Positions 115 through 43,939 of a DNA stretch of 64,000 nucleotides are shown here, piece by piece. Numbering within the stretch: the first letter of the stretch is position 1; each line of letters begins with the position of its first letter. The DNA is from Apium graveolens (Eukaryota; Streptophyta; Magnoliopsida; Apiales; Apiaceae): positions 25,295,562 to 25,359,561 of the forward strand of contig NC_133648.1 in the NCBI RefSeq assembly GCF_009905375.1, given 5' to 3'. The notes below the pieces were generated by a model. That model had not been told where the DNA came from, did no database searches, and worked only from the letters and a program-made list of their open reading frames with translations. The position numbers and the translations under genes were made by a program.

Positions 115-184
115 TGTTAGGAATATGTGTATTAGTTTGATGATAAGTTAAACAAAACACTTAAGTAGAAATCTAGTGTTTGTA

Positions 185-575
185 GCCTCAACGGATAAGA
201 CCATTCTGGCTATCCATTGATGGAGTAGCTTTACTTAGAAATAAGTTTAGTATTGTAGCATATTTCAGTTTCTGTATTTAAGCTATAATTCTTAGATGAT
301 TGTGGGAAATTATAAGTCATGTTGACTACTAGTGGATATATAAATAGGAGGGCTAATTGTAAATATTTCATGCCTTGTAATTTTGTATAAGTGAAGTAGT
401 ATCAACTGATAAATTAAAGGCCTTCAACGGATGAGAAATAAAGCTTCAACGGATGTCTCTAAAGCTTCAACGGATAACATCCATCAATGGATGAGTGCAT
501 CAACGGATAAAGCCTCAACTGCTAATGCATCAATGGATAAAGCCATCAACGGATGAAAGCTTCAACGGATGCTCA
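185..575 (+). repeat. TCAACGGAT word array in A1 5' LTR
   Basis: One forward word and one degenerate reverse word lie near 190-220. About nine further forward copies run from about 424 to 570, spaced mostly 15-21 bases. Several copies read TCAATGGAT, the change expected from deamination of a methylated CpG. The core AACGG is the pentamer of plant MYB3R/MSA sites (established knowledge). Binding here is inference. Confidence 0.85.
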
Positions 576-824
576 GTTCAATAGCAGTTGACAGTGACAA
601 TTCATAAGCTGACAGAGGCACATGGGTTGACAGAGACAATTAGAATATGGTAGCCTCTTGGAGGAATCAAGAAAATGCAGCATTTCCATTCTGGTGCAAA
701 CAAGGAAGTATTCAAAGATTCACAGATTATCCTAGATTGCATTGGATAGAGAAATGAAGAAGAAACATGTGAAGAATCTTTTTAATTGTATTTGTACTTT
801 TGTCTTCACTTGTAAACTTGGTGA

Positions 825-832
825 TATATAAA
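825..832 (+). promoter_or_regulatory. LTR TATA box of A1
   Basis: TATATAAA lies about 360 bases before the LTR end, the usual U3/R position. The same box is present in the other three A LTRs, and a similar TATATAAA is in the B LTR. It is probably the transcription start region of the element. Confidence 0.6.
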
Positions 833-1190
833 CCAAGTTGCATCTAGTAATTAGATGGTGAATTTTCCAGAGCTGTTTAGAAAAACATAGAGAGAAAATC
901 ATCTAGTTTGTACTAGGACGTAGCTGTGATCAATTCTTTTGAATCACAGATTTTCTGAAATACACATCTTTGGTGGAACAACAAATCCACCAGAAAAGTT
1001 TTTAAAGCCTTTGTGTTCTTTACATTTGTGTTTTGAATATATATCTGTCTGCACCTACCCAAAGCAATTCACACACAACTGTTCATCAAAACACTTAGCC
1101 TTTGAAACTGCTCAAAACTTAAAAAAGTTTTGAGATTTACATTCAACCCCCTTCTGTAAATCTCATTGTTAGTTAGTTGGGAATAACAAT

Positions 1191-1202
1191 TGGTATTAGA
1201 GC
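1191..1202 (+). other. A1 primer binding site (tRNA-iMet)
   Basis: TGGTATTAGAGC lies two bases inside the 5' LTR. A2 has the canonical TGGTATCAGAGC, complementary to the 3' end of plant initiator tRNA-Met. The A1 copy therefore has one C->T change in the primer site. Confidence 0.85.
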
Positions 1203-1248
1203 AAGCTCTTAACTTACAAAGAGTTTAAAGATCTATTCTACTAACATA

Positions 1249-3662
1249 ATGAGTAAGAAGGATATTGGTGTAAAGATTCCAATCCTGTAAAGAGATAATT
1301 ATCATCACTGGAAAGTGAAGATGCATCTAAATCTTCTCTCTCAAGATGAAAGCTACATCAACTGCATAAAAATGGTCCTCATATCCCTCACAAGGTAGCC
1401 ACAGCTGCAACTGCCACAGTCGCTATTAGACAGTCTATTCCCAAGCCAAAAGCAGAATGGACTGATGAAGATATTGAAGAGGTTCACAAGGACAAGAAAG
1501 CCATGAACATTCTGTTTAATGGCCTAGATCAAGATATGTTTGATAATGGCATTAACAGCCAAACTGCTAAGGAAATTTGGGATACTGTGCAACTTATCTG
1601 TGAAGGTACTGAACAATTCAGAGAAAACAAAATGCAGCTTCTCATGCAACAGTATGAATACTTTCATTTTGAAGAAGGAGAATCACTGAATGATACCTTC
1701 AATAGATTTCAGAAACTGTTGAATATATTGAAGCTGTATGGCAGAGTGTACCAAGTCAAGGATTCCAACTTAAAATTTCTGAGGTCTCTAACAAAGGAAT
1801 GGAAGCTTATGACTGTTTTACTAAGGAATTCTCAAGATTATAAGGACTTCACACTTGAAAGATTATATGGAATTTTGAAGACCTATAAACTTGAGATGGA
1901 GCAAGATGAGCTGTTGGAAAAGGGAAAGAGAAAAGGTGGATCAGTTGCACTTGTAGCTGACAATGAGAAGACTGAAGCCAGGAATAAAGAAAAGACAATG
2001 CCAAGTCTCAAAATTGGCGCAAGCAAATCAGAATCAAGCAAAGGAAAGGAGCAAGTAGCTGAGGTTGAAGATAGTTCCAATCAAGATGACTCTGATGATG
2101 TTGATGAACATCTGGCTTTTCTGTCCAGGCGGTTTGCAAAGATGAAATTCAAGAAAAATGCTAGATTCACTAAGCCAAACAAGAACATGGTGGACAAATC
2201 TAAGTTCAAATGTTATAACTGTGGCATAAGTGGATACTTTGCAAATGAGTGTAGAAAGCCAACCTCTGATAAGAAGAAATTTGAGCAAGTTGATTACAAA
2301 AAGAAATATTTCGATTTTCTCAAACAAAAGGAAAGAGCCTTTTCTGACTCAGGATTACTGGGCAGCGGATGGAGCCAATGAAGATGATGATATGGAATAT
2401 GTCAACCTAGCCCTGATGGCTAATTTTGATGAAAATGAAACTAGTTCATCAAGCAACCAGGTAATTACTAATGACCTCTCTCAGCTTTCTAAGATTGAAT
2501 GCAATGAAGCTATAAATGATATATCCAATGAATTATATCATTTGCGTGTTTCCTTTAAATCACTAGCTAAAGAAAACACAAGAATTAAAGAAAATAATTT
2601 GTTTTTAAGTGATAGGAATGCTGTGTTAGAGGGTAAGGTAATTGAGCTTGAAAAGATTAAAATCAAATGCTTATCTGTTGAGAGTGAACTAGAAGAATCT
2701 GCTAAGAAAGTAGAAATTCTTTCTAAACAATTAGAACGTGAACAAGATGTAATCAAGGCCTGGAAAACATCTAGGGATGTTAGTGCTCAGATTGTCAAGG
2801 TTCAGGGAATTGAATCACTCTGTGAGAATGCCTGGAAGAAAAACAAAAAGGAAGTAGAATTAATTGATGGATTATCAACGGATGTGGAATCAACGGATGA
2901 TGAAAGTTATCTGTTGAAGGAAGAACAGGAGCATCCGTTGAAGGCTCATCAATTGAAACAGGAAAGTGATTCTAAAAAGAACAATTTGAAAAATCTCAAT
3001 TAGAAGTTTGGTTCAACTTCCAAAACTTTGTCAAAGAAGAAGGTAGTACATCCAAAGATGCCAGTAAGGTGAATATAGGACACATGACTTTAGATCAGTT
3101 GAAAAATAGGCTAAAGATGGTTGAGGATAAAAAAGAAACTAAAAGGAAATCTAACAGAAATGGGAAGGTAGGGATTAACAAACACAACAATTACACACCT
3201 GATAAGTATGCTCCTAGAAAAAGTTGTGTGCATTGTAAAAGTGTTAATCATCTATCTGCTAACTGCAAGTCTGTTAAGAATGCTCCCATGCCTTTAACTC
3301 CTTCCATGCCTAACATGTCTATGTCACCTCTACATGCTATGCCTGTTATGTCTCAACAGAATCCTCATGCACATTTTACAAACATGCCATATGTTAATAA
3401 TCCTTATTTTGCTGCATTCAGTATGCCTCAAATGCCATACAACATGCCTATGTGGAATAATGTATTTGCACAATCCATGCCTTATCAAATTCAACCAAAT
3501 GTGCTAAATGATTCTGTGACTAACCCTACACTTCAACCAACTACATTTGAAACCAAGGTTGACCCAAAGTTACCTAAGTCAAAAGATACAGGAGGTATGA
3601 AGTCTAGGAAAAAGACTAACAAGGTTGGACCCAAGGAAACTTGGGTACCAAAATCAACTTGA
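1249..3662 (+). pseudogene. A1 gag (broken)
   Basis: Nucleocapsid precursor of the Sirevirus. The ATG at 1249 starts a copia gag N-terminus. The UBN2-type capsid region lies near 1,450-1,900, followed by a charged linker and one CCHC knuckle (about 2,213-2,255) whose histidine is changed to tyrosine (CYNCGISGYFANEC). A heptad-like coiled coil spans about 2,560-2,800, and a second CxxC knuckle (CVHCKSVNHLSANC) lies near 3,225-3,266. A Met/Pro-rich tail ends at TGA 3660-3662. Compared with A2 there is an in-frame TAA near 1,286, a 1-base loss near 1,370, a 1-base gain near 2,340, TAG at 3001-3003 and a further 1-base loss near 3,025. The coding part at 2,875-2,945 contains three TCAACGGAT words in both orientations. 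Confidence 0.9.
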
Positions 3663-3682
3663 TTTGACTTTGTTGTGTGCAG
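3645..3682 (+). other. gag-pol junction with intron-like borders (A1)
   Basis: Gag ends in a TGA shortly after the motif ETWVPKST. Pol resumes after a pyrimidine/T-rich run ending in GTGTGCAG|GG, a good 3' splice-acceptor match. A GT at 3645 falls on a gag codon boundary and the G after CAG at 3683 falls on a pol codon boundary, so removing 38 bases would fuse the frames. A2 has the same borders with 37 bases, and B has 39. Such an intron would be far below the usual plant minimum, so the real donor may lie further upstream, or pol may be reached by recoding. Confidence 0.4.
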
Positions 3683-6600
3683 GGAAAAAGAATGAATCTA
3701 TGGTACTTGAACAGTGGTTGTTCAAGGCACATGACATGAGATTTCACCCTGCTCACAGAGTTCAAGGAGAGAGCTGGCCCTAGCATAACCTTTGGAGATG
3801 ACAACAAAGGGTTCACTATGGGATATGGCCTGATTTCAAAAGAAAATGTCATCATTGATGAAGTTGCATTAGTTGATGGTTTCAAACACAATCTATTGAG
3901 CACCAGTCAACTATGTGACAGAGGGAATACTGTTTCCTTCAATTCTGAAGCCTGTGTTGTCACAAGTAAGAAGGACAATAAAGTGGTTCTAACTGGAGTT
4001 AGAAAAGGGAATGTGTACTTGGCTGACTTCAACTCTACAGATGCAGAATCAATTACTTGTCTTTTCAGCAAAGCAAGTCCAGATGAAAGTTGGTTATGGC
4101 ACAAGAAGCTGTCCCATTTAAATTTCAAGATAATGAATGATCTAGTAAAAAAGGACTTAGTTAGAGGAATGCCTCTAGTGGAATTCTCAAGGGATGGACT
4201 GTGTGATGCTTGTCAGAAAGGAAAGCAAAAGAGAACATCATTTAGTAAGAAGCTTGAATCAGCAATTGAAGAACCATTACAACTGCTACACATGGATCTT
4301 TTTGGACCAGTTAATGTATTATCAATTTCAAGGAAAAATATTGCCTAGTGATTGTTGATGACTTCTCTAAGTTTTCATAGACCTACTTTCTTGGATTAAA
4401 GGATGAAGCTAGTAAAATCATTATCAATCACATCAAACAAGTCAACAATTATCCAGATTTCAATGTAAGGAATATCAGGAGTGACAATGGAACTGAGTTC
4501 AGAAATTCTATGATGAGGTTGTTCTGTGAAGAAAATGGGATCATGCATCAGTTCTCAGCTCCAAGGACTCCACAACAAAATGGTGTGGTGGAAAGGAAGA
4601 ACAGATCACTAATTGAAGCTGCAAGAACAATGCTTGAAGAGTCAAAACTCCCAACATATTTTTGGGCTGAGGCTGTTAACTGTGCATGTTACACTCAGAA
4701 TATTTCTCTAATCAATCAGGCAAAAGGCATGACTCTCTATCAATTGTTCAAGAGAAGAAAACCAACTTTAAACTTTCTTCATGTCTTTGGTTGAAAATGC
4801 TACATTCTAAGGAACAACCTAATCACAAAGGGAAGTTCGATGCAAAGGCTGATGAAGGAATATTTGTTGGTTATTCTGTTGGAAAATCATATAGGATCTA
4901 CAATCTAAGAACTAACATTGTTATAGAATCTGTGCAAGTTATGTTTGATGATAAAAAGATTGATGGAATAACAGACGAGGGACATCATGAAGGACTCAAA
5001 TTTGACAACATTAAGATATATTGTGATGATAGTGAAGATGAGAATGATGGAGAAGGCACCTCGAAAAGAATTCAAAATCTGCCTTTGGATAATGCACAAA
5101 ATGCTGCATCAGTTGAAAGTCATAATTCAGCATCTGTTGATAGAAATAATGCAGCATCCGTTGAAAGACAAAGTGCATCATCCGTTGAAGTACATAATGA
5201 AGCATCCATTGATCATAGTCTATCAACGGATAATCAATTCACTTCATCAGTTGATAGAACTCCCAGCTCCTTTCAAAGGATCAGTAACTCATGGGGAGTT
5301 TCAACCAATCAACACTCTATCTCACATCATGACAATACTGAGGCAACCTCATCTAGAGCTAATCTACCACCTCAAAGGAAATGGACCAAGAATCATCCTT
5401 TTGAATTGATCATTGGTGATGCAACATCTAAGGTGCAGACTAGAAGGGCTACTCAAGATGAATGTCTATACAGTAGTTTTCTATCACGAGAGGAACCTAA
5501 GAGAGTGGAAGAAGCTCTATTGGATCCATATTGGATTTTAGCAATGCAAGAGGAGCTAAACCAATTTGAGAGGAACAAGGTATGGAAGCTGGTACCCAAG
5601 CCAAAGAACAAGAGCTCTATTGACACAAAATGGGTATTCAGGAACAAGATGGATGAAAATGGCATTGTCATAAGGAATAAAGCCAGATTGGTTGCCAAGG
5701 GCTATTCTCAACAAGAGGTAATAGATTTTTGATGAGACATTTGCTCCAGTTGCAAGACTTGAAGCCATCAGAATCTTTCTAGCCTATGCAGCCCATGCCA
5801 ATTTCAAAGTCTATCAAATGGATGTCAAGAGTGCTTTTCTGAATGGAGAATTGGAGGAAGAAGTTTATGTAAGCCAACCTCCAGGATTTGAAGATCCAAA
5901 TTTTCCAGACTATGTGTATTATCTGTTGAAAGCACTCTATGGACTAAAGCAAGCACCTAGATCCTGGTATGAGACTTTGTCAAAATTTCTTCTAGATAAT
6001 TACTTCACAAGAGGTACTGTTGACAAAACTCTTTTCTTTAGAAATATTAATGGCTCTACAATACTTGTTCAAATCTATGTAGATGATATTATATTTGGTT
6101 CTACAGATGATAAGCTTTGTAAAAAGTTTGCTAACTTAATGCAAAGTAAATATGAAATGAGCATGATGGGAGAGCTAACTTATTTTCTTGGTTTACAAGT
6201 TAAACAAGTTAGTGGTGGAATTTTCACTAGTCAAACTAAATATATTTATGATCTTTTAAAGAAGTTTGACTTAATGGATTGTTCATCTGCAAAAACTCCT
6301 ATGACCACTGCCACCAAGCTTGAATTAAAAAAGGCTGAAAAGTCTGTGGACATTACAAGTTATAGAGGCATGGTTGGCTCACTTCTATATTTAACTGCTA
6401 GTAGACCTGATATAATGTTTTCTACATGTCTCTGTGCTAGATTTCAAGATGATCCTAAAGAATCTCACTTAGTGGCTATTAAAAGAATATTCAGATATCT
6501 CAAAGGGACACCAAATCTAGGAATATGGTACCCTAGAGAGTCTGGTTTTGATCTAATTGGCTACTCAGATGCAGATTATGCAGGTTGCAAAATAGACAGG

Positions 6601-7020
6601 AAAAGTACAACTGGCACCTGTCAATTTCTAGGGAATAAGCTTGTGTCATGGTTCAGCAAGAAGCAAAATTCTGTTTCTACATCAACAGCTGAAGCTGAGT
6701 ACATTGCTGCTGGTAGTTGCTGTGTACAGATACTATGGATGAGGAATCAACTATTTGACTACGGGCTAACTGTTGACAAAATTCCTATATTCTGTGACAA
6801 CACAAGTGCCATTGCCATTACTGAAAATCTAGTGCAGCACTCAAGAACCAAGCACATTGACATCAAGTACCACTTCATAAGGGAACATGTGATGAATGGT
6901 AAAATGGAACTTCATTTTGTTCCAAGTGAAAAGCAGATTGCAGACATATTTACCAAGCCACTTGATGAATCAACATTCACAAGATTAGTAAGTGAGCTAG
7001 GTATGCTTAATTATTCATAA
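3683..7020 (+). pseudogene. A1 pol: protease-integrase-RT-RNase H (broken)
   Basis: Copia-order polyprotein. The protease motif at 3710 reads NSG instead of DSG, so the catalytic Asp is lost. GAG-pre-integrase HHCC lies near 4,090-4,230. The integrase DDE residues are visible (HMDLFGP, RSDNGTEF, NGVVERKN). A Ser-rich linker at about 5,100-5,350 follows. RT runs from about 5,500 with YVDDIIFGS near 6,080, and RNase H carries [15 protein letters not shown] and CDNTSA. The last 400 codons (5,818-7,020) are intact. Breaks are TGA 3737, a 1-base loss near 4,335, Trp->TAG at 4378, Cys->TGA at 4792, a 1-base loss near 4,815 and a 1-base gain near 5,727. YFLGLQVKQ and MSMMGEL motifs place it in the SIRE/Maximus lineage. 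Confidence 0.93.
5105..5235 (+). repeat. Word array in the A1 integrase-RT linker
   Basis: About six copies of ATCCGTTGA or one-base variants (mostly reverse orientation, encoding Ser-Val-Glu) and one forward TATCAACGGAT at 5,220 lie within the coding linker between integrase and RT. The protein repeat differs from that in gag or ORF3, while the DNA word is the same. Confidence 0.8.
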
Positions 7021-7576
7021 ATTCATGTCCTTATTATAATTTGTTTTGAAGCCTGAAATGAATTTGTTGCAAGAACAAAGTTGGCTTTAAGTAAAGTTTA
7101 TTCTATCAATGGATATTCCCTATCCGTTGAAAGCCAAAATTGTTCTATCAACGGATGTTCACTATCCGTTGAAAGGCAAATACATTTCTGGTAATTTTAT
7201 CCTTCAACGGATAAAACTGTGTTAATCTTCAATGAATAACTATTTACCTCATCCTTTGAAGTGTCACATCAGTTGTTTTAAGTAAGTCACAACCGTTGAT
7301 TCTTTTACTTAACCGTTGATACATATATATATACATAGTCGTATGTATTTGTATTAAAGGCAGTTTTTGGAATTTATACATTTTTCTTTATTCTCAAACG
7401 GCTATAATTTACTTAAAAATATTGATTAATCATTCTCCTTACGTTTTAATTTGAGAAAGTATAAAAGCCCTTGAATTTTTATTCTCACTTTACGCTTTCT
7501 TGCAATTTTTCAAAAGCTTTTACTCTCTTTCTCTCCCAAAACTCTCAACTTTTCTCTGCAACCTCTACCCACTACA
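7021..7576 (+). promoter_or_regulatory. A1 pol-ORF3 spacer with hairpins and TATA box
   Basis: 556 bases without a gene. Two inverted word pairs, 7,106-7,130 and 7,148-7,172, each have 9-base arms and exactly 7 bases between them. Further single words lie to about 7,325. GTATAAAAG at 7,459-7,467 is followed by a C/T-rich leader (about 7,490-7,570) and the ORF3 ATG at 7577. The same elements are at the same spacing in A2. This looks like an internal promoter for ORF3; transcription is not shown by sequence alone. Confidence 0.6.
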
Positions 7577-10500
7577 ATGGCACCAGTAGTAAAGATAATG
7601 TCCCAGTCTGGATTTGTCTATGAGAAAAACAATTTCATAGCTTTGGTGGAAAAGAATGAAGCCCACTCAGATTATCACAAGATGATGGACTTCATCAAAA
7701 ACTGCAAACTAAGCTATGCAATGCTGGAAGCCCCAACTATTTACTGTGAGGTAATTGAGGAGATTTGGACAACTGCAGAGTTCAACCCCACTGATATGAC
7801 CATCTCTTTCACTCTCAAAGGTAAAGATTATTGTATTAATTGTGATGATATACAGTCCTGTTTCAAACTACCTGAGAACAATGCCATGACACCACACACT
7901 GATAATGATGTATCTAGCATGTTAGATTCCATAGGCTATTCTTTTGATTCTGCTAGTTTAGGGAGTATTAGAAGAAAAGGCCTTAGGAAAGAATGGAGTT
8001 TTCTTGGTGATGCCTTTATCAAGGTTTTCACTGGGAAAATTAGCAATTTTGATGCAATAACTTCATCTCTAGTTAATATGCTCTATATGCTAGTTTCTGA
8101 TAGGTATTTTAATTTTAGCAACTATGTCATGCTAGAATTGGGTACCAGGTTAGGTAACAAAGCTAATAGACCTCATAACATCTACTATGCTAGATTCTTT
8201 ATGTTATTGGCTAACCATGTTGCTGAAGTTTTGGTCATAACCAATGAGAGTAATAAACTCAAATGCTGGGCACAAGAGAAAAGGGTCCTTGCAGACCTTT
8301 TGAGAATTAACCTCAACAATCAGGTGCCATTGGTATATTTACCAATAATGAATGCATCTCAGGTAAGTGAGGTAAATACTTCTTCAACTCCTACTACTTC
8401 AAACCCCATTATTTATTTGCCTTCAAGTGTGGCCATGGAATCTGTGTCCTTGTCCCAACAGATTCCTACCAAAGCCACCAAACCTAAAGTTTCAAGACCA
8501 AAGTCAAAGAAAGCCACCTCTGTTGTTTCTCCAAAGACAACAGTTGTAACAACTACCATAAACCCTGAGGGGAGTGAACAGGGTATGAGTGGTGAGGGGA
8601 GGGGTGAACATCAAGAAACCCCCCAGGATAAGGTAGGAGAGGTGAGTCGTACCCCAGCTAGCCAAGCCACAGTTTCTCAAAAGACTGTAGTGGTTGAAAA
8701 GGATTCAAACTCATCCCTAGTTGCATCCTCCCAAAAGGGTGCAGCTATTGAAAATAGTCCCCAACCAGGGACACAGAACAAAAGAGGGAGGGAAACTGAA
8801 GCCACACACTCACCTGTAAAAGCCTTTTCAAGAAGAAAGAGGATCAAAACCTTAGTCTCCACACAGGGTGCACACACTGCACAGATACACCCACCTGTAT
8901 CTATGCCTTCTCAAATTCAGCTTGATGTGACTCCAACAAATGTGGAGTCACAATCCCATTCTCTCAAAATTGACACACATCAATCACCAAATTCTCCATC
9001 ACCATCTCTGGATGTGGACATGATATTCACATCAATTCCTGATTCTCCCTCTTTACAACTCAGGGAGGAGCCCCACTCAAATACTGGTGATCATCATCTT
9101 TTAGATGATTTGTTGGATCATAAGCCAATTCTTTCAGATTTGGTTGAAGAATCTATGTCACCAAAATTAAAATCAATCCACACATATTCAACAATCATGT
9201 TACTTTCAATTTCTACTTCTTTTCCTTCTTCAACAGATATTCCTCATTCGTTGACAAGTGGTTGTTCTTCGACGGATAAGCTTAACAGCAGTTATCCGTT
9301 GATATCATCAGTTCCTACTTTAACGGATCCTCCCTATCCGTTGATAGTCTCTACACAAATAGCTGAATCAATTCCAAGTGTAGAAGACATGGTTACTGTA
9401 CAATCACTTCTAGGTTTGAGGGAAGGGAGTGAAAGTTTGAGTGAGAGGCTGGGTTGCTCCCAGGCAAAAGGAGAGCTTGAGAGTCTAAATATGCATGCTA
9501 TTTCTTCCAGCATGGCAAAAGAAAGTGAGAGGAGTGCCATCTTAGTAGGTGAGGGTGAGGGTGTGAGGAGTGTGAGCCAGGGGGAGCCCCTGATGCAAGA
9601 AAAGAGAGAAATTGAGAGAAAAGCAGGTACATAAGGTATAAGGGTGGATCCAGCCATTGCTAATGAGTCAATGATTGTGGATGATGCTAAAAAGGAAAGA
9701 CAATTTTAGCAACATTACAAGGCTATAATTGATAACATTTCCTTGCATGCTGACACTTTTACTCATCCTGTGTCAGCCTATCAATTGTTGGCTACTCAGG
9801 GCAATGAGGCGGCAGAAAAGACTTTAAACCTAGTGCATACTTCAGAATCTCTACAAAGGGATAAAGCTGCTGTCAACTTGATGCCTTCTACAGCTGGTGA
9901 GCCATCTGTAGAATTTGGAGTAAATTCTAACGATGATGACTCTGTTTCATTTTGTGGAAGCATGAACTTAGGGGGAGATGAAGGCCCAAGTTCTATTCCA
10001 GATTTACCTGAATGGGCATTGACAAAGGAGTCAACACCAGGACAATTCAATGTCTCCTTAGTCAAACAAATCCTGTCAATCCAAAGAGCCATTCAAAACA
10101 CCTCCAATGCTGGTACCAAGGCTCTTCTTCAAGCCCACCTAGATTCTCTACATCTCATGAAGCTACAACAATTAAGGCAGAATCTGAGTGTGGATGAGCT
10201 CAAGAAGGGTATAGCTGACTTAAAGTCCTACAATTCTGAGAAGCTGGATTCAGTCATGCCCTATGGTACCATGCAAGACTTGTTACTGAGACTAAGAAGA
10301 GAATCAGATGCTGAAAAGAGGCTGGCCAAGTTGGAGGACAGAGTTCATATCATTGAAAACTCTATGGTCACCATTCTTCAAAATCAACAGTCTCAGACAA
10401 GTCTACTCATGCAATTGGCTAAAGCACAAGGCTTGACTCCTCTCCTTGATGATAAAAAAAGGGGGAGAATAAAGAAGGGGGAGGGGAGCCATCTACAAAC

Positions 10501-12120: not shown

Positions 12121-12307
12121 TCTGCTCAGCCTAAAGGAGCATCCTTGGAAATAATGAAATTCTTCAATTCTATCTCAGTACATACACTTTTGCAGCACTT
12201 TTGAATTTCTACTTGACTTCAGTTCATATATTTGTTAAGTGCTTTGTTATCATCAAGTTAAACCTGAATTTATGCCTACAATTCTAGTAGACATAAATAG
12301 GGGAGAT
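12121..12307 (+). other. A1 3' untranslated tail and polypurine tract
   Basis: A non-coding tail after ORF3 ends with a purine run AAATAGGGGAGAT at about 12,294-12,306, directly before the 3' LTR. This is the expected plus-strand primer of reverse transcription. Confidence 0.75.
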
Positions 12308-13382: not shown

Positions 13383-13387
13383 GATGA
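13383..13387. repeat. Target-site duplication of A1, right copy
   Basis: GATGA, identical to 110-114. After it the B gag reading frame resumes. Confidence 0.85.
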
Positions 13388-14845: not shown

Positions 14846-14863
14846 TGGTCTTTGTGATTGCAG
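14825..14863 (+). other. gag-pol junction with intron-like borders (B)
   Basis: GT at 14825 occupies the position equivalent to the A junction. The segment contains two stops and ends in TTGTGATTGCAG|GG, again a 3' splice-acceptor-like end, after which pol starts. The length is 39 bases, in frame here even if not removed apart from the stops. Recurrence in a distant family supports function; the mechanism is open. Confidence 0.4.
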
Positions 14864-23263: not shown

Positions 23264-23466
23264 AGCCAAGTCAAAGATCTACAACTGCTTAAATTCTGAT
23301 GTGTATACAGACTGAAGCTGTTATCAGACCTTAAGATGGTAAAGCTAAACGAACTATAAGTTTTTGTTATCTAGTCAAATTCTCATGCATTTGTACTTAA
23401 TATTTTTGAAATCATCAAATATCTGTTAAACTTGTATATTATGCTAATTTACAAGTTGGGGGAGAT
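23264..23466 (+). other. B 3' untranslated tail and polypurine tract
   Basis: A non-coding tail with two TTCTGAT-like words ends in TTGGGGGAGAT (23,456-23,466), the polypurine tract right before the LTR. Confidence 0.75.
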
Positions 23467-31789: not shown

Positions 31790-31791
31790 AT

Positions 31792-31803
31792 TGGTATCAG
31801 AGC
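31792..31803 (+). other. A2 primer binding site (tRNA-iMet)
   Basis: TGGTATCAGAGC, the canonical sequence complementary to the 3' end of plant initiator tRNA-Met, two bases inside the LTR. Confidence 0.9.
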
Positions 31804-31849
31804 AAGCTCTTAACATACAAAGAGTTTAAAGATCTATTCTGCTAACATC

Positions 31850-34275: not shown

Positions 34276-34294
34276 TTGATTTTGTTGTGTGCAG
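34258..34294 (+). other. gag-pol junction with intron-like borders (A2)
   Basis: 37 bases from GT at a gag codon boundary (after Trp) to GTGTGCAG|GG at a pol codon boundary. A1 differs by one base in length, yet both border phases are kept, which is expected for a spliced or recoded join and not for a simple readthrough. Confidence 0.4.
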
Positions 34295-37200
34295 GGAAAA
34301 AGAAGGAATCTATGGTACTTGGACAGTGGCTGTTCAAGACACATGACAGGAAATTTCACCCTGCTCACAGAGTTTAAGGAGAGAGCTGGCCCTAGCATAA
34401 CCTTTCGAGATGACAGCAAAGGATTCACTATGGGATATGGCTTGATTTCAAAAGAAAATGTCATCATTGATGAAGTTGCATTGGTTGATGGTCTCAAACA
34501 CAACTTATTGAGCATCAGTCAACTATGTGACAGAGGGAATACTGTTTCCTTCAATTCTGAAGCCTGTATTGTCACAAGTAAGAAGGACAATAAAGTGGTT
34601 CTAACTGGAGTTAGAAAAGGGAATGTGTATTTAGCTGACTTCAACTCTACAGATGCAGAATCTATCACTTGTCTTTTCAGCAAAGCAAGTCCAGTTGAAA
34701 GTTGGATATGGCACAAGAAGCTATCCCACTTGAATTTCAAGACAATGAATGATCTAGTCAAAAAGGACTTAGTTAGAGGAATGCCTCTAGTAGAATTCAC
34801 AAGGGATGGACTGTGTGATACTTGTCAGAAAGGAAAGAAAAAGAAAGTATCATTCAGTAAGAAGCTTGAATCTGCAATTGATGAACCATTACAACTGCTA
34901 CACATGGATATTTTTGGACCAGTCAATGTATTGTCAATTTCAAGGAAAAGATAATGCCTAGTGATTGTAGATGATTTCTCAAAGTTTTCATGGGTTTATT
35001 TTCTTGGATCAAAGGATGAAGCTAGTGAAATCATTATCAATCATATCAAGCAAGTCAACAATCATCCTGATTTCAAAGTAAGGAATATTAGGAGTGACAA
35101 TGGAACTGAGTTCAAGAATTCAACCATGAAGTTGTTCTGTGAAGAAAATGGGATCATGCATGAGTTCTCAGCTCCAAGGACCCCACAACAAAATGGTATG
35201 GTGGAAAGGAAGAATAGATCACTAATTGAAGCTGCAAGGACAATGTTTGAAGAGTCAAAACTCCCAACTTACTTTTGGGCTGAGGCTGTTAACTGTGCAT
35301 GTTACACTCAGAATATTTCTCTAAACAATCAGGCAAAAGGCATGACTCCCTATCAATTATTCAAGAGAAGAAAACCAACTTTAAACTTTCTACATGTCTT
35401 TGGTTGCAAATGTTACATATTAAGGAATCAATCTGATCACAAAGGGAAGTTTGATGCAAAGGCTGATGAAGGAATATTTGTTGGTTATTCTGCTGGAAAA
35501 TCATATAGGGTCTACAATCTAAGAACCAACATTGTCATGGAATCTGTGCATGTTGTGTTTGATGATAAAAAGATTGATGGACTAATAGATGAGGGACATC
35601 ATGAAGGACTCAAATTTGACAATATTGAGATATATTGTGATGATAGTGAAGATGAGAATGATGAAGAAGGCATCTCAAGAAGAATTCAAAATATGCCTTT
35701 GGATAATGCACAGAATGCTACATCCGTTGAAAGTCATAATTCAGCTTCCGTTGAAAGAAGCAATGCATCATCCGTTGAAAGACAGAGTGCATCATCTGTT
35801 GAAGTTCATAATGAAGCATCCGTTGATCGCAATCTGTCAACGGATAATCAATTCACTTCATTAGTTGATAGAGCTCCCAATTCCTTTCAAAGGATCAGCA
35901 ACTCAGGGGGAGTTTCAACCAATCAACATTCTATCACACATCATGACAATACTGAGGCAACCTCATCTAGAGCTAATCTACCACCTCAAAGGAAATGGAC
36001 CAAGAATCACCCTTTTGAACTGATCATTGGTGATGCTACATCTAAAGTGCAAACTAGAAGGGCTACTCAAGATGAATGTCTGTATAGTAGCTTTCTATCA
36101 TAGGAGGAACCTAAGAGAGTAGAAGAAGCTCTATTGGATCCAGATTGGATTTTAGCAATGCAAGAGAAGCTAAACCAATTTGAGAGGAACAAAGTATGGA
36201 AGCTGGTACCCAAGCCAAAGAACAAGAGTTCTATTGACACAAAATGGGTATTCAGGAACAAGATGGATGAAAATGGCATTGTCATAAGGAATAAAGCCAG
36301 ATTGGTTGCTAAAGGCTATTCTCAACAAGAGGGAATAGATTTTGATGAAACATTTGCTCCAGTTGCCAGACTTGAAGCCATCAGAATCTTTCTAGCCTAT
36401 GCAGTCCATGCCAATTTCAAAGTCTATCAAATGGATGTCAAGAGTGCATTTCTAAATGGGGAATTGGAGGAAGAAGTTTATGTAAGTCAACCTCCAGGAT
36501 TTGAAGATCCAAACTTTCCAGACTATGTATATTATCTGTTGAAAGCACTCTATGGACTAAAGCAAGCACCTAGAGCCTGGTACGAGACTTTGTCAAAATT
36601 TCTTCTAGATAATCACTTCACAAGAGGTACTGTTGACAAAACTTTTTTCTTTAGAAATGTTAATGGCTCTACAATACTTGTTCAAATTTATATAGATGAT
36701 ATTATATTTGGATCTACAGATGGGAGAGCTAACTTATTTTCTTGGTTTACAAGTTAAACAAGTTAGTGGTGGAATTTTCATTAGTCAAACTAAATAAATT
36801 TATGATCTTTTAAAGAAGTTTGACTTAATGGACTGTTCATCTGCAAAAACTCCCATGGCCACTGCCACCAAGCTTGAATTAAACAAGGCTGAAAAGTCTG
36901 TGGACATTTCAAGTTATAGAGGCATGGTTGGCTCACTTTTATATTTAACTGCTAGTAGACCTGGTATAATGTTTTCTACATGTCTCTGTGCTAGATTTCA
37001 AGCTGACCCTAAAAAATCTCACTTAGTGGCTATTAAAAGAATTTTCAGATATCTCAAAGGGACTCCAAATCTAGGAATTTGGTACCCTAGAGAGTCTGGT
37101 TTTGATCTAATTGGCTACTCAGATGCAGATTATGCAGGCTGCAAAATAGACAGGAAAAGCACAACTGGCACCTGTCAATTTCTAGGGAACAAGCTTGTGT

Positions 37201-37574
37201 CATGGTTCAGCAAGAAGCAAAATTCTGTTTCTACATCAACAGCTGAAGCTGAGTACATTGCTGCTGGTAGTTGCTGTGCACAGATACTATGGATGAGGAA
37301 TCAACTATTTGACTATGGACTAACTGTTGACAAAATTCCTATATTCTGTGACAACACAAGTGCCATTGCCATTACTGAAAATCCAGTGCAGCACTCAAGA
37401 ACCAAGCACATTGACATCAAGTACCACTTCATTAGGGAGCATGTGATGAAAGGTACAGTGGAACTTCATTTTGTTCCAAGTGAAAAGCAGATTGCAGACA
37501 TATTTACCAAGCCACTTGATGAATCAACATTCACAAGATTAGTAAGTGAGCTAGGTATGCTTAATTATTCATAA
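34295..37574 (+). pseudogene. A2 pol: protease-integrase-RT-RNase H (nearly full length)
   Basis: Protease keeps LDSGCSRHMT. The integrase zinc-binding HHCC region (about 34,710-34,830) and core (HMDIFGP, RSDNGTEF, NGMVERKN) are present. [11 protein letters not shown] is near 36,695. RNase H ([21 protein letters not shown]) ends at TAA 37572-37574. Damage: TAA at 34952 (Tyr codon), TAG at 36101, a 59-base deletion at 36,722/36,723 just after the RT catalytic motif, which removes about 20 residues and shifts the frame, and a TAA near 36,796. A large part, 34,961-36,103, is open. Layout and lineage are the same as A1. Confidence 0.93.
35721..35850 (+). repeat. Word array in the A2 integrase-RT linker
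   Basis: Four exact ATCCGTTGA words, two one-base variants and one forward TCAACGGAT lie in coding sequence. They encode a Ser-Val-Glu repeat, with ASVDR and LSTDN at the end. Confidence 0.85.
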
Positions 37575-38117
37575 ATTTATGTCCTCTTTATAATCTGCCC
37601 TGAAGCCTGAAATGAATTTGCTGCAAGAACAAAGTTGGCTTTAAGTAAAAATTATTCTATCAATGGATATTCCCTATCCGTTGAAAGCCAAAATTGTTTT
37701 ATCAACGGATGTTCATTATCCGTTGAAAGACAAATACATTTCTGGTAATTTTATCCCTCAACGGTTAAAATAGTGTTGATCATCAACGGATAACTATTTA
37801 CCTTATCCGTTGAAGTGTCACATCAGTTACTTTAAGTGAGTCACAACCGTTGATTCTTTTACTCAACCGTTGATACAGATATACATTGTTGTATATATTT
37901 GTATTAAAGGCAGTTTTCAGAATTTCTACAGTTTTCTTTATTCTTAAACGGCTGTAATTTATTTAAAAGTATCATTTAATCATTTTATTTACGTTTTAAT
38001 TCAAGAAAGTATAAAAGCCCATTGAATTTTTATTTTCACTTTACGCTTTCTTGCAATTTTTATTCTCCTTCTCTCCCAAAACTCTCAAGTTTTTCTCTGC
38101 AACCTCTACTCACAACA
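37575..38117 (+). promoter_or_regulatory. A2 pol-ORF3 spacer with hairpins and TATA box
   Basis: Inverted word pairs lie at about 37,660-37,684 and at 37,702-37,726, the second with perfect arms and a 7-base loop. Further words run to about 37,870. TATAAAAG at 38,010-38,017 and a C/T-rich leader precede the ORF3 ATG at 38118. Spacer and order match A1. Confidence 0.6.
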
Positions 38118-41100
38118 ATGGCACCAGTAGTCAAAATTATGTCTCAGTCTGGATTTGTTTATGAAAAGAACAATTTCGTAGCCTTGGTTGAAAAGAATGA
38201 AGCCCATACTGACTATCACATGATGATGGACTTCATCAAAAACTGCAAACTAAGCTATGCAATGCTGGAAGTCCCAACTATTTACTGTGAGGTAATTGAG
38301 GAGATTTGGACAACTGTAGAGTTCAACTCCACAGATATGACTATTGCCTTCTCTCTCAAAGGTAAGGATTATTGCATTAACTGTGATGATATACAGTCTT
38401 GCTTTAAGTTGCCTGAGAATAATGCCATGACACCATACACTAATAAAGATGTATCTGCTATGTCTGATTCCATAGGCTATGCTTTTGATTCTGCTAGCTT
38501 AGGTAGTATTAGAAGGAAGGGCCTTAGGAAAGAATGGAGTTTTCTTGGAGATGCCTTTATCGAGGTTTTCTCTAGGAAGATTAGCAATTTTGATGCCATA
38601 ACTTCATCTCTTGTTAATATGCTCTATATGCTAGTTTCTGATAGGTACTTTAATTTTAGCAACTATGTCATGCTAGAATTAGGTTCCAGGTTAGGTAACA
38701 AAGCTAATAGACCACATAACATCTACTATGCTAGATTCTTTATGTTATTGGCTAACCATGTTGCTGAAGGACTGGTTATATCTAATGAGAGCAATAAACT
38801 CAAATGCTGGGCATAAGAGAAAAGGGTCCTTGCAGACCTTTTGAGAATCAACCTCAACAACCAGGTGCCATTGGTATATTTGCCAATCATGAATGCACCA
38901 CAGGTAAGTGAGGTAAACACTTCAATAACTCCTACTGTTTCCAACCCCACTATTTCTTTGCCTTCCAGTGTGGCAATGGAATCTGTGTCTCTGTCCAAAT
39001 AGGTTCCTACCAAAGCCACAAAAACTAAAATTTCAAAACAAAAGTCAAAGAAAACCACCTCTGTTGTTTCTCAAAAGACAACAGTTGTAACAACTACCAT
39101 AAACCCTGAAGGGAGTGAACAGGGTGTGAGTGGTGAGGGGAGGGGTGAACATGAAGAAACCCCCCAGGATAAGGTGGGAGAGGTGAGTGGTACCCCAGCC
39201 AGCCAAGCCACAGTCTCTCAAAAGACTGTGGTGATTCAAAAGGAGTCAAACACATCCCTAGTTGCATCCTCCCAAAAGGATGCAGCTATTGAAAATAGTC
39301 CCCAACCAGGGACACAGAACAAAAGAGGGAGGGACACTGGAGCCACACATTCACCAATCAAAGCCTTTTCAAGGAAGAAGAAGGCCAAGATCCTAGTTTC
39401 CACACAGGGGGCACACACAACATAGATACATCCACCTGTATCTTTGCCTTCTCAAATTCAGCTTGATGTGACTCCATCAAATGTGGAGTCACAGCTCCAT
39501 TCTCTCATAATAGAAACACATCAATAATCAAACTCTCCATCACCCTCTCTGGATGTGGATATGATATTCACATCAATTCCTGATTCTCCCTCCTTAAAAC
39601 TCAGGGAGGAGCCCCACTCAAAACCTGATGATCATCATCTTTTAGATGATTTGTTGGATCATCAGCCAATTCTTTCAGATATAGTTGAAGAATCTGTGTC
39701 ACCTCACTTAAAATCAATTCACACAGATTCAACAATTATGTCACTTTCAATATCTACATCTTTTCCTTCTTCAACGGATATCTCTCATCCGTTGACAAGT
39801 AGTTGTTCTTCGACGGATAAGCTTAACAGCAGTTATCCGTTGATATCATCAGTTTCCACTTCAACGGATACTCCCTATCCGTTGATGGTCTCTACTCAAA
39901 TAACAGAAACAATTCCAACTATAGAGGACATGGTTACTGTACAATCACTTTTAGGTTTGAGGGAAGGGAGTGATAATTTGAGTGAGAGGCTGGGTTGCTC
40001 CCAGGCAAAAGGAGAGGTTGAGAGTCATCATATGCATGCTATTTCTTCCAGCATGGCAAAAGTGAGTGAGGGGAATGCCACCTTAGAAGGTGAGGGTGAG
40101 GGTGTGAGGGTGTGTGTGAGCCAGGGGGAGCCCTGATGCAAGAAAATAGAGAAAATGAGAGAAAGGTGGGTACAGAAGCTATAAGGGTGGATCCAGCCAT
40201 TGCTAGTGAGTCAATGATAGTGGATGATGCAGAAAAGGAAAGATAATTTCAGCAACATTACAAAGCTGTAATTGATAACATTTCCTTGGATGCTGACACT
40301 TTTACTCACCCTATTCCAGCCTATCAATTGTTCGATGCTCAGGGTAATGTGGAGGCAGAACAGACTTTGAACATTGTACACACTTCAGAATCTTTTCTCA
40401 GAGACAAAGTTGCTGTTAACAGGCTGCCTTCTCAAGCTGGTGAGCCATCTGAGGAATTTGAAGTAAATTCTAATGATGATGACTCTAATTCTTTGGATGA
40501 GAGCATGAACTTAGGGGGAGTAGCAGGCCCAAGTTCTGTTCCAGATCTACCTGATTGGGCATGGGCAAAGGCATCTTACCAGGAGAATTTGATATGACTT
40601 TGGTCAGGCAAGTAATGACTATTCAGAAGGCCCTTCAGGAGACTACAGATGCTGGTACCAAGGAAATTCTTCAAACTCATCTGGACTCTCTGCATCTCTT
40701 GCAGTTGCAGCATTTCAAACAGAATCTAAGTGTGGATGAACTCAAGCAGGACATTTCTGATCTGAAATCCTACAATGCTGAGAAGTTGGATTCAGTCATA
40801 CCTTATGGTACTATGCAAGATTTGTTGGGGAGATTGAGGAAAGAATCTGATGCTGACAAGAGGCTGGCCAGATTGGAAAACAGAGTTCAGATCATTGAAG
40901 ACTCTATGGTCACAATTCTTCAGAATCAACAAACTCAGACAAATCTACTAATGCAGCTGGCAAAAGCACAAGGCTTGACCCATACCCTTGATGATAATAA
41001 AAAGGGGGAGAATAAAAGGGAAGGGGAAGGAGAGCCATCAACAACAGTTCAAATATCTCAAGTGCTAGTTCCTGCCATCACCACTTCTCCAACTATTCAA

Positions 41101-42615
41101 ATCAAAGGAAAGCTTGATGGAATTGATCTAATCCAGATAGTAGCAGCTGAATTGCAAGTCAAAGAGCAAAGGAGGAAAATTGATGAAAAGGTACAACAAA
41201 TTTTTGGTTCTACAGCTTCTAAATCACAATCTGTGAAGCATAGCACAAAGGTGGAATCAATTATTATGGAGCTCAAGCCAGTGAGGAGGAATAAGGTTGG
41301 AGAGACTTCTGCCAAGAATATGAAACCTATGGTTCTCAAGCCCAACAACAGATCCAATAAGGACTCTACAAAGAATCCTCTAAGCCTTGCTCAGATGAAA
41401 GAAGTGGATTTTCCTCTTCCAAAGCCTGATGAAGACAAGGTTTTGGGTGGAAGTATCATAAAGCACAAAGAGACCATGGATGTGGTTGAAAGGATGAACA
41501 TGGCTATTATCTTTAGAGAGGGAAAGAGCATTTGTGTGATGCAAGGACATCCCAAATTCTCAATAGCCAAGAGGGAAGAAGCCAGAAGGTTGAAGGAAGA
41601 AGCCAAAAAGCTAAAGGCTGACAAAAGAGCACAAGCAAAACTTGAAAAACAGCTAAAGTCAAGTCAAGCTGAAGAAAAGAAAGAAATTGAAGACAAGAGT
41701 GAAGATGTAGGTATGGGGGATATGTTTAGTGATGATGTGGGAGAAAGAAGTAAGGAAAGAGAGGAATGGCAGAAAGGGAACAGAAAGAAGGCCAATGCAA
41801 AAAGAAAGATGGTAGATGAGACTGAAGAAACCCAATCAAAATCCAAACCACTACCTTCTATTCCTGAACCCATTGTGCCTAACCCTTTCATAAATATCCA
41901 TGGTAAAACAATCACTCCTAAGGAGGAACCAATTGATTGGGACACCATCAAATTGCCCACCTTCTTAACCACTTCTCCACCCTCAAAGAGACAGAAAAGA
42001 AAAATCAAATCAACACCTCCTCCAACCTCAATCAAATTCACTCAGAAGCCTAAGCCTAAGCCACAAGCCTCTAAGGATGATTATGTTCACATTTGTGACA
42101 TAAAGGAATTTTCAGACATTGAACTCTATCTGGATGAGCTGGAGGAAGTAAGGGGAATAGATGCCTACAGACAGCTACCAGAAAGACTAGTGTTCAAATA
42201 CAAAGGAAGTGGGGAAAGAACTTGGCCTCTCTACAGGATTCTGAATGAAGGCTACTCTACCTTGGTTAGAGTCTACTCAGCCATAAAAAGGGATTCTGGC
42301 TTTACCAGGACTGTTAAGACTGAGATTCTCAACAAGATTGCCAACATAAGGAAGACTTGGTGGGAGCCCAATGCCTTGCCTAGAACATTACTCATTCAAG
42401 AAAGAGGAATTACAGTTCACAAATCACCTCATTGGTTGATGGAGTTCAGAGACAACAAAGGAGTCAGAAGATTTTTCAGACTTGAAGATCAGCTCAAGAT
42501 TGCCAGTAATGAAACTCTCAAGGATATGCAATCTAAGTTGAACATCAATGAAGAAGATGAAGCTGAGTTCTACAGACAACTTCAACTTCAAATTAGGAGA
42601 ATGACAGGAGGCTAG
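38118..42615 (+). pseudogene. A2 ORF3, giant 3' ORF in the env-like position (broken)
   Basis: Same protein as A1 ORF3, about 1,500 codons. The N-terminal domain is intact to TAA 38814. Further stops are TAG 39000, TAG 39423 and one near 39,527. A 1-base loss near 40,133, a stop near 40,246 and a frame change near 40,585 follow. From 40,555 to 42,615 it is open for 686 codons, covering the coiled coil (about 40,850-40,980), a Lys/Glu-rich region and the C-terminal domain (about 42,080-42,600, KSPHWLMEFRDNKG). No signal peptide or membrane span is seen. The long uninterrupted C-terminal half suggests the protein was under constraint until recently. The function is unknown. Confidence 0.85.
39771..39885 (+). 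repeat. Three inverted word pairs inside A2 ORF3
   Basis: Forward words at 39,771, 39,810 (TCGACGGAT) and 39,861 each pair with a reverse word at 39,787, 39,835 and 39,877. The first and third pair have exactly 7 bases between perfect 9-base arms; the middle pair has 16. All lie in coding sequence. Confidence 0.9.
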
Positions 42616-42837
42616 GAAAGAAAACAAGGGATCAAAGGAAAAGAAATTAATCTGCTCAGGCTAAAGGAGCACCTTGGAAATAATGTAATTCTTCAATTCC
42701 ATCTCAACATACACATTTTTGCAGCACTTTTGAATTTCTGCTTTATTACAGTTAATATATTTATCAAGTGTTTTGTTATCATCAAGCTAAACCCAAATTT
42801 ATGCCTACAGTTCTAGTAGACATAAATAGGGAGAGAT
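42616..42837 (+). other. A2 3' untranslated tail and polypurine tract
   Basis: A non-coding tail ending AAATAGGGAGAGAT just before the LTR, colinear with 12,121-12,307 of A1. Confidence 0.75.
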
Positions 42838-43939
42838 TGTTAGGAATATGTGTATTAGTTTGATGATAAGTTAAACAAAACACTTAAGTAGAAATCTAGT
42901 GTTTGTAGCCTCAACGGATAAGACCATCTTGGCTATCCGTTGAAGGAGTAGCTTTAATTAGTAATAAGTCTAGTATTGTAGCACATTTCATTCTCTGGAT
43001 TCAAGTTGTAATTCTTAGATGTTGTAGGAAATTATCAGTCATGTTGACTACTAGTGGATATGCAAATAGGAGGGCTAATTATAAATATATCATGCCTTGT
43101 AATTTTGTATAAGTGAAGAAGTATCAACTGATATTGAAGACCTTCAACGGATAAGAAACAAAGCTTCAACGAATGTCTCTAAAGCTTCAACGGATAATAT
43201 CCATCAACGGATAAGTGCTTCAATGGATAAAGACTTCAACTGCTAATGCATCAACGGATAAAGCTTCAACGGATAAAGCCTCAACGGATAAGGCATCAAC
43301 GGATGAAAGCTTCAACAGATGCTTAGTTCAATAGCACTTGATAGTGACAATTCATAAGCTGACAGAGGCACATGGGTTGACAGAGACAAACTGGAATGTG
43401 GCAGCCTCTAGGAGGAATCAAGAAAATGCAGCATTTCCATTCTGGTGCAAACAAGGGAGTATTCAAAGATTAACAGCTAAACCTAAATTGCATTGGATAG
43501 AGAAATGAAGAAGAAACATGTGAAGAGCCTTTTAATTGTATTTTACAGTTTTGTCTTCACTTGTAAACTTGGTGATATATAAACCAAGTAGCAGCTAGTA
43601 ATTAGATGTGATTTTTCAAGAGCTGTTTAGAAAAATCCAGAGAGAAAATCATCTAGTTTGTACTAGGAAGCAGCTGTGATTTAATTCTTTGAATCACAGA
43701 TTTTCTGAAATAACACATCTGTGGTGGAACAACAAATCCACCAGAAAAGTTTTTAAGTTCTCTGTGTTCTTTACATTTGTGTTTGAATATATATCTGTAT
43801 GCATTAGCTTCAAGCAATTCACACACATTTGCTCACTAAAACACTTAGCCTTAGAAACTGCTCAAAACTTGAAAAAGTTTTGAGATTTACATTCAACCCC
43901 CCTTCTGTAAATCTCATTGTTAGTCCACTGGGAATAACA
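42838..43939 (+). repeat. A2 3' LTR
   Basis: TGTTAGGAATATG to GGGAATAACA. The inverted word pair near 42,912-42,945 (15-base spacing) is intact here but has lost a base in the 5' LTR. The word array is at about 43,140-43,325. Confidence 0.93.

What the first reader, a model, noticed from the sequence alone, without database searches (positions are those of the whole stretch)
115..43939. One 9-base word, TCAACGGAT, sown through coding and non-coding parts of Sirevirus A
Seen directly: the word or its complement recurs at five separate addresses in both A1 and A2. These are LTRs (about 424-570; 30,990-31,172; 43,140-43,325), gag C-terminus (2,875-2,945; 33,497-33,562), integrase-RT linker (5,105-5,235; 35,721-35,850), pol-ORF3 spacer (7,106-7,325; 37,660-37,870) and ORF3 (9,230-9,350; 39,771-39,885). 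It appears in both orientations and encodes unrelated peptides (STD, SVE, YPL), so the repeated unit is the nucleic acid, not the protein. Precedent exists for repeated protein-binding boxes in plant copia LTRs (Tto1, Tnt1). Placement of the same word inside three coding regions is not something I know to be described.
Basis: partly seen in the sequence, partly recalled or inferred. Interest (0 to 1): 0.88.

Follow-up and report, generated by a model that had tools for sequence, protein, structure and literature searches.

The report
Repeated DNA word inside retrotransposon genes
Two copies of a mobile element in a celery-family plant carry one nine-letter DNA word dozens of times, in their control regions and inside three protein-coding stretches where the DNA letters themselves look protected, suggesting docking sites for a DNA-reading protein written across the element's genes.

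Summary
TCAACGGAT occurs 59 times exactly (0.12 expected), all in two Sirevirus copies, A1 and A2, at the five addresses named. It is the A-family version of a known feature, the Sirevirus "repeated motif" (RM) of Bousios et al. [quoted passage not shown] Not described there: clusters inside gag, the integrase-RT linker and mid-ORF3. There the count beats codon-preserving shuffles; in sampled genomic copies non-CpG word positions are 3-6 times less variable than flanks, third codon positions included. The palindromic form occurs at 22,187 places in the host genome against 0 for the reversed control. A second Sirevirus, B, in which A1 is nested, uses another word, AAGTTCTGAT, in the same kinds of place; its words are not more conserved than flanks in my sample. 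A conserved TATA box lies between the spacer words and ORF3. Best reading: binding sites for a sequence-specific DNA-binding protein, serving the LTR promoter and an internal ORF3 promoter, with extra sites kept in coding DNA.

The parts
115..13382 (+). Sirevirus copy A1 (LTRs 115-1188 and 12308-13382), nested in element B; target-site duplication GATGA 110-114 / 13383-13387
   Evidence: self-BLAST; junctions read
30689..43939 (+). Sirevirus copy A2 (LTRs 30689-31789 and 42838-43939), nested in an LTR-like block of repeat family C; target-site duplication TATAT 30684-30688 / 43940-43944 (scripts used 30687 as its start)
13383..24070 (+). Sirevirus B, right-hand part (the left-hand part is 1-114 and beyond the window); 3' LTR about 23467-24070, its end judged by resemblance only; own word AAGTTCTGAT
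188..570 (+). A1 5' LTR word cluster: 7 exact words, all + strand, mostly a direct array 402-570 (steps 16-22 bp, one of 30), upstream of the conserved LTR TATA box at 825
12381..12763 (+). A1 3' LTR word cluster (5 exact)
30762..31170 (+). A2 5' LTR word cluster (9 exact)
42911..43320 (+). A2 3' LTR word cluster (9 exact, one of them on the - strand)
2875..2941 (.). A1 gag C-terminal coding cluster (two + then two - words, one with one mismatch); peptides STD and HPL/YLL
33496..33562 (.). A2 gag C-terminal coding cluster
5108..5254 (.). A1 integrase-RT linker coding cluster, 24-bp array; peptides SVE/SVD and STD
35722..35845 (.). A2 integrase-RT linker coding cluster
7106..7319 (.). A1 pol-ORF3 spacer cluster with two 9-7-9 palindromes (one with a one-mismatch arm)
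37660..37873 (.). A2 pol-ORF3 spacer cluster
7460..7466 (+). Candidate internal promoter TATA box (within GTATAAAAGCCC), 117 bp upstream of the ORF3 ATG at 7577; A2 equivalent at 38010, 108 bp before its ATG at 38118; the only internal TATAWA aligned and conserved between A1 and A2
9230..9344 (.). A1 ORF3 coding cluster: three +/- pairs, two of 9-7-9 geometry (only two words exact in A1)
39771..39885 (.). A2 ORF3 coding cluster (5 exact words); peptides STD, HPL, YPL
16200..16428 (.). B integrase-RT linker cluster of its own word, same address as in A
18220..19263 (+). B pol-ORF3 spacer cluster of its own word (8 sites, all + strand), upstream of a TATA-like site at 19539 and the ORF3 ATG at 19712
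19795..23261 (.). B words inside ORF3 frames (11 sites, up to one mismatch)
23558..23657 (-). B LTR sites of its own word (2 exact, 2 with one mismatch; 15-bp period at the core), upstream of a TATA box at 23850

Best explanation
The word is a family-specific DNA-binding site. Direct arrays in the LTR and palindromes in the pol-ORF3 spacer lie upstream of conserved TATA boxes and act as upstream activating arrays for the genomic promoter and for an internal promoter that makes ORF3 mRNA. The same protein is given further sites in the tolerant parts of coding DNA (gag C-terminus, integrase-RT linker, mid-ORF3), roughly every 2 kb over the first 9 kb, where they act at a distance as enhancers or keep the body of the element open. 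Selection holds these letters as DNA as well as codons. Related families have changed the word but not the kinds of place, which points to a reader that changes with the family. Shown: the words, their excess over codon shuffles, their extra conservation in A, the second word in B, the TATA boxes.
For: 59 words vs 0.12 expected. Codon-preserving shuffles. A1 vs A2, loci with up to one mismatch: non-CpG word positions differ at 9 of 336 sites vs 134 of 1516 flank sites; p 9e-6 against a neutral simulation with the same ascertainment; coding clusters alone 4/126 vs 59/583, Fisher p 0.006 (counts, test). Sampled copies: diversity at non-CpG word positions vs flank 0.031 vs 0.104 (linker), 0.045 vs 0.133 (spacer), 0.024 vs 0.150 (ORF3); third codon positions 0.032 vs 0.124 and 0.029 vs 0.190. 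Motif logos have sharp edges and, outside the selected core, a purine directly after it (28/31 in A, 31/36 in B). Words occur in both orientations, direct and inverted, as DNA sites do. TATA boxes downstream of the LTR and spacer clusters. B has its own word, 35 sites vs 2.6 expected, none of A's word, dense in linker, spacer and LTR and nearly absent from the enzyme cores, as in A. 22,187 palindrome places genome-wide vs 0 in the control.
Against: No binding, expression or chromatin data. B's words are no more conserved than flanks in 28 of 29 fetched copies (0.059 vs 0.059; 0.044 vs 0.050), though those copies are so alike that most differences may postdate insertion. The CpG positions of A's words are not conserved in the linker: 0.179 against 0.104 in flanks (spacer 0.102 vs 0.133, ORF3 0.069 vs 0.150). 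The gag cluster could be tested only on A1 vs A2. Coding clusters have no conserved TATA box of their own, so their role is the weakest step. CpG retention in words vs elsewhere is better from A1 to A2 (20/24 vs 11/29, p 0.0009) but not from A2 to A1 (21/32 vs 10/19, p 0.27). The internal A clusters can also fold as RNA hairpins.
Confidence: 0.6

Rival explanations
1. The reader is a host MYB-type factor (a more specific form of the best explanation). The A word contains AACGG, the core of the MSA element bound by three-repeat MYB3R proteins (and the general MYB core YAACKG, recalled), so the element would be transcribed with the host cell cycle or under stress.
For: Word contains AACGG; PMC8964727 (passages seen) shows four AACGG cores, in both orientations, in a MYB3R target promoter. 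TCAACTGAT, the third commonest one-mismatch form (7), still fits YAACKG. MYB regulation of plant copia LTRs has precedent (Tto1, recalled; search listing only).
Against: The conserved unit is longer and ends in GATR, which AACGG does not need. B's word has no MYB core yet sits in the same kinds of place.
Confidence: 0.25
2. The element encodes its own reader (another specific form of the best explanation), probably part of ORF3, which binds its family's word and counters silencing or activates transcription, as VANC proteins of VANDAL transposons do.
For: Families A and B have different words with zero or near-zero cross-occurrence, and both words end in GATR, as expected if related readers diverge, though this may be chance. 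VANC precedent: family-specific 8-9-base motifs in tandem repeats (PMC5735166, passages).
Against: No Pfam family reaches its cut-off in the ORF3 pieces scanned, and no DUF1985 or DUF287 match at E up to 5 among 17 ORF3 sequences, the window's and 16 relatives. AlphaFold models are poor (pLDDT 47 and 65) and the better one has no PDB match at E 0.001. VANC sites are mainly non-coding.
Confidence: 0.25
3. The words act in RNA: paired inverted words form hairpins in the genomic transcript that bind Gag, aid packaging or dimerisation, or feed the small-RNA machinery.
For: Internal clusters fold far better than shuffles: z -6.5 spacer, -5.1 gag, -4.0 linker, -4.0 ORF3 in A1; -7.5 spacer and -6.4 ORF3 in A2.
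Against: The A1 LTR array stretch tested is all one orientation and folds no better than shuffles (z +0.9). B's internal words are mostly in the same orientation. What is conserved is one fixed sequence, also where it has no nearby partner; inverted DNA sites give hairpins for free.
Confidence: 0.15
4. No function at the nucleic-acid level: slippage in disordered linkers and peptide-level repeats, plus recent shared ancestry.
For: The coding clusters lie outside the enzyme cores, in stretches that look low in complexity; the linker array differs by whole 24-bp units between copies; B's words are not more conserved than flanks.
Against: Three codon phases and two orientations give unrelated peptides; codon shuffles fail; third positions are conserved in A; flanks beyond the word are near random, so words are not segmental duplicates.
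Confidence: 0.06

Closest known systems
Sirevirus repeated motif (RM), Bousios et al. 2010, BMC Genomics 11:89 (PMC2829016; abstract, passages and sections 9, 10, 19, 20 read)
   Same: High-copy motif of one element family; CGG-CCG palindromes; in the upper half of the LTR upstream of a TATA box and in the linker upstream of ENV; rich in CpG; a few boxes at the start of ENV in Osr10 and HOPIE; one element (Tnd-1) has a motif without CGG.
   Different: Here further clusters lie in gag, the integrase-RT linker and mid-ORF3; LTR units are direct half-sites rather than full palindromes; coding words are conserved at third codon positions; family B's word has no CGG. The paper could not conclusively identify an internal ENV promoter; here a conserved TATA box is found.
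VANC/VANDAL anti-silencing system of Arabidopsis (PMC5735166, PMC10398659; passages seen)
   Same: Short (8-9 base) words, tandem arrays, different words in related transposon families.
Repeated activator boxes in Tnt1/Tto1 LTRs (recalled; not read)
   Same: Repeated protein-binding boxes in a plant copia LTR.
   Different: LTR only; not Sireviruses; no coding clusters known to me.

Membership tests
Sirevirus RM (Bousios 2010) | Host element is a Sirevirus (PBS TATCAGAGC beside the LTR, C-rich integrase signal near the LTR end, copia gag with CCHC, long ORF after pol) | tested here: met
   PBS in A2 exact, in A1 one change; CAACCCCCTTC about 35 bp from the A1 LTR end; Pfam Retrotran_gag_2 above cut-off in A1 and A2, zf-CCHC above cut-off in A2. 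Multiple PPTs and a phylogeny not tested.
Sirevirus RM (Bousios 2010) | At least 8 copies per element, in LTR upper half upstream of TATA and upstream of ENV | tested here: met
   24 exact in A1, 35 in A2; LTR array 402-570, TATA 825; spacer cluster before ORF3
Sirevirus RM (Bousios 2010) | Palindrome with CGG-CCG core | tested here: inconclusive
   Met in spacer and ORF3 of A (9-7-9 palindromes); A's LTR units are direct half-sites; B's word has neither palindrome nor CGG, which the paper allows only for Tnd-1 as to CGG
Sirevirus RM (Bousios 2010) | Confined to non-coding DNA (title and Table 3 of the paper, apart from 5 extra boxes at the start of ENV) | tested here: not met
   Clusters inside open frames of gag, the integrase-RT linker and mid-ORF3
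Sirevirus RM (Bousios 2010) | Boxes form CpG islands | not tested
   Words hold 24 of 53 CpGs in A1 and 35 of 54 in A2, but no formal CpG-island call was made
VANC/VANDAL system | Family-specific short words in tandem arrays | tested here: met
   A and B words nearly exclusive of each other; arrays
VANC/VANDAL system | Words mainly in non-coding DNA | tested here: not met
   Coding clusters; counts by region
VANC/VANDAL system | Element encodes a DUF1985/DUF287 reader | tested here: not met
   No such Pfam match in A or B ORF3 pieces or in 17 ORF3 sequences at E up to 5; very divergent homology not excluded
VANC/VANDAL system | Reader binds the word and removes DNA methylation | not testable with these tools
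   needs binding and methylation assays
MYB3R/MSA target | AACGG core, in either orientation | tested here: met
   A word contains AACGG; B's word does not
MYB3R/MSA target | Bound by MYB3R, G2/M expression | not testable with these tools
   needs ChIP or cell-cycle expression data

The most novel reading that the evidence does not exclude
An LTR retrotransposon lineage in which each family writes its own short DNA password through promoters and coding genes alike, read by its own diverging DNA-binding protein (VANC-like), so that the whole 13-kb element, not only its LTR, recruits its activator or anti-silencer; families are insulated from each other by changing the password.
Probability: 0.2. 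Interest if true: 0.9.

Novelty: new variant of a known kind. Interest (0 to 1): 0.62.

Why it matters
It turns the old, unexplained Sirevirus RM boxes from a feature of LTRs and the pre-ENV linker into an element-wide code that, in one family, looks selected at the DNA level inside genes, and it shows two related families with different codes in the same host genome. That makes two open questions directly testable: how Sireviruses express ORF3 (a concrete internal promoter is named), and whether a retrotransposon can carry a self-specific activation or anti-silencing system. It also warns that synonymous sites in transposon genes need not be neutral.

Tried and rejected
Rejected: chance; peptide repeats; segmental copying of larger units (flanks near random). 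Tried without result: IMG/VR for relatives by the RT protein (none); three IMG/VR contigs with the palindrome have no other similarity to the window by blastn at E 0.001 and are probably chance. AlphaFold of the ORF3 N- and C-terminal parts too weak to use. From Heracleum ORF3 proteins (STK..LSL where A has STD..HPL) I predicted a changed word there; the one Heracleum linker found reads SVG, not the predicted FVE, so that inference is dropped. Protein-level look at linkers: of 40 relatives 21 had a parsable linker; 15 of these hold 2 or more word-type peptides, 2.2 on average vs 0.28 in shuffled linkers; 5 hold none, a Daucus protein among them. This cannot show the DNA. Planned but not answered: genome counts of B's word and of CCAACGGAT palindromes, and a search for further families.

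Literature: nothing on RMs inside coding DNA, beyond the start of ENV, was seen in the listings (PMC open licences only) or in the passages of PMC2829016, PMC3414828 and PMC9073684. The 2016 Genome Research paper on maize Sirevirus palindromes is recalled, not read.
Full report
Setting. The window lies in a 3.33-Gb plant assembly, contig C2. Its ORF3 proteins match Apium graveolens best, then Heracleum and unnamed records, so the host is of the celery family, probably celery itself (inference). A1 (115-13382) and A2 (30689-43939) are Sirevirus copies with LTR pairs 97.7% and 97.3% identical; aligned to each other they differ at 9.6% of sites. A1 sits in B, a second Sirevirus whose pol DNA is 66-73% identical to A's; A2 sits in an LTR-like block of a repeat family, C, that has no BLAST similarity to A or B. 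Target-site duplications are GATGA and TATAT.

The word. TCAACGGAT occurs 59 times exactly, 24 in A1 and 35 in A2 and nowhere else in the window; 0.12 are expected. Arrangement: direct steps, mostly 15-22 bp, in the LTR; 25-bp palindromes of 9-7-9 geometry in spacer and ORF3; a 24-bp, 8-codon array in the integrase-RT linker; ++-- in gag. Logos of 31 A1-internal and 36 B sites (up to one mismatch) fall to near background outside the word, except for a purine directly after it in both families, a pyrimidine directly before it in B and a weaker pyrimidine preference two and three bases before it in A.

Is it DNA or protein that is kept? In six open frames the synonymous shuffles that reach the observed count are 0, 0, 2, 0, 0 and 0 of 2000; with codons sampled from usage outside words 0, 0, 3, 0, 0 and 0; with codon order permuted, none. 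Outside the words ACG is 3 of 116 Thr codons and CCG 0 of 96 Pro codons in these frames, yet STD and HPL/YPL words use them.

Conservation, A1 against A2. Word loci with at most one mismatch in either copy (48 loci): 9 differences in 336 non-CpG positions; flanks 134 in 1516. A neutral simulation with the same selection of loci expects 8.5%; p 9e-6. With exact words only, 6 in 266, p 0.0015; with up to two mismatches, 15 in 371, p 0.0003. Coding clusters alone: 4 in 126 vs 59 in 583 (counts; Fisher p 0.006). The two LTRs of one element are not independent, so the first p-values are somewhat too small.

Conservation, sampled copies. I held 46 A loci besides A1 and A2: 17 chosen by exact palindromes on one contig and 29 chosen by an RT segment without words, 98-99% identical to A1's and so of its subfamily. 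Usable: linker 42 of 46, spacer 45 of 46, ORF3 17 of 46 (the palindrome-chosen ones; the others do not reach that far). Word loci were those exact in at least a quarter of the sequences, which favours conserved ones. Diversity in non-CpG word columns vs flank: 0.031 vs 0.104 (2 of 5000 random block sets as low), 0.045 vs 0.133 (0 of 5000), 0.024 vs 0.150 (0 of 5000). The words' CpG columns do not follow in the linker: 0.179, above its flank; spacer 0.102, ORF3 0.069. The ORF3 word pair that was not a selection target gives 0.025 vs 0.146 in flanks and 0.081 between the words (38 of 5000 random pairs as low). Non-CpG third codon positions: linker 0.032 vs 0.124 (p 0.003), ORF3 0.029 vs 0.190 (p 0.0015).

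CpG. A1 has 53 CpGs where base composition predicts 456; 24 of the 53 are in exact words, which cover 1.6% of the element. A2: 54 vs 470, 35 in words; in A2's two LTRs 18 of 20 CpGs are in words. CG-to-TG and CG-to-CA changes are the commonest word defects (11 each), as expected of methylated cytosine decay. CpG retention in words is better than elsewhere from A1 to A2 (p 0.0009) but not from A2 to A1 (p 0.27), so I do not claim protection from methylation.

Second family, second word. B has AAGTTCTGAT: 35 sites with at most one mismatch in 13382-24083, against 2.6 on average in 30 shuffles; A's word has none there; B's word has none in A1 and 3 one-mismatch sites in A2. Density per kb (up to one mismatch) in B: linker 12.9, spacer 5.4, ORF3 3.1, LTR 6.6, end of ORF3 to LTR 9.8, enzyme cores 0.0 and 0.6. 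In A1: linker 20.8, spacer 14.4, LTR 10.3, ORF3 1.5, enzyme cores 0.8 and 0.6. So both families put their own word outside the enzyme cores, coding or not; the gag positions do not match closely between the families. Both words end in GATR, which may be chance. Against the idea of selection in B: in 28 of 29 fetched copies words persist (3-7 per linker, 6-11 per spacer) but vary as much as flanks.

Promoters. TATAWA sites conserved between A1 and A2 are found only in the LTRs (825 and 1038, and their 3' LTR counterparts) and at 7460, 117 bp before the ORF3 start codon (108 bp in A2). Of 46 A loci, 36 show such a box upstream of the ORF3 start codon, 29 of them at 115-117 bp; in 10 none was found by the pattern used. 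B has a TATA-like run 173 bp before its ORF3 ATG. Bousios et al. suspected an internal ENV promoter but could not conclusively identify one. In A1 the last LTR word lies about 255 bp, and the last spacer word about 140 bp, upstream of the TATA box.

What reads it. AACGG is the MSA core bound by MYB3R (PMC8964727, passages), but B's word lacks it. ORF3 pieces reach no Pfam cut-off and gave no usable fold. RNA hairpins are predicted at the internal A clusters tested but not in the LTR array, and B's internal words are mostly in one orientation, so RNA does not explain the whole pattern.

Verdict. The LTR and spacer clusters are a new member of the Sirevirus RM class. Clusters of the same word inside three coding regions, conserved at third codon positions in the two that could be tested so, and a second family with another word in the same kinds of place, are a new variant.

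Noticed in passing
7440-7577; 37990-38118: Conserved TATA box and CT-rich leader before ORF3: a concrete candidate for the long-suspected internal promoter of the Sirevirus env-like gene.
   Followed up: partly
5096-5212; L010, L011, L014-L017, L019, L021: The integrase-RT linker of A copies differs by one or two whole 24-bp (8-codon) units between copies, while words remain.
   Followed up: partly
24084-30686 and 43940-61496: Several related repeats (family C, type not determined) share LTR-like blocks in chain order; one block is split by A2.
   Followed up: no
62177-62427: Two adjoining tandem arrays (21- and 36-bp units) that both contain GAGAACTC-like stretches, not similar to the A or B words.
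   Followed up: no
45138-45241: A perfect (GA)52 microsatellite.
   Followed up: no
337-345: A second TATA-like site in the A1 LTR, upstream of the word array, not conserved in A2.
   Followed up: partly
P0032, P0033, P0039: Some relatives read SVG in place of SVE/SVD in the linker, which could mean a further word variant (CCAACGGAT); the genome count did not complete.
   Followed up: partly
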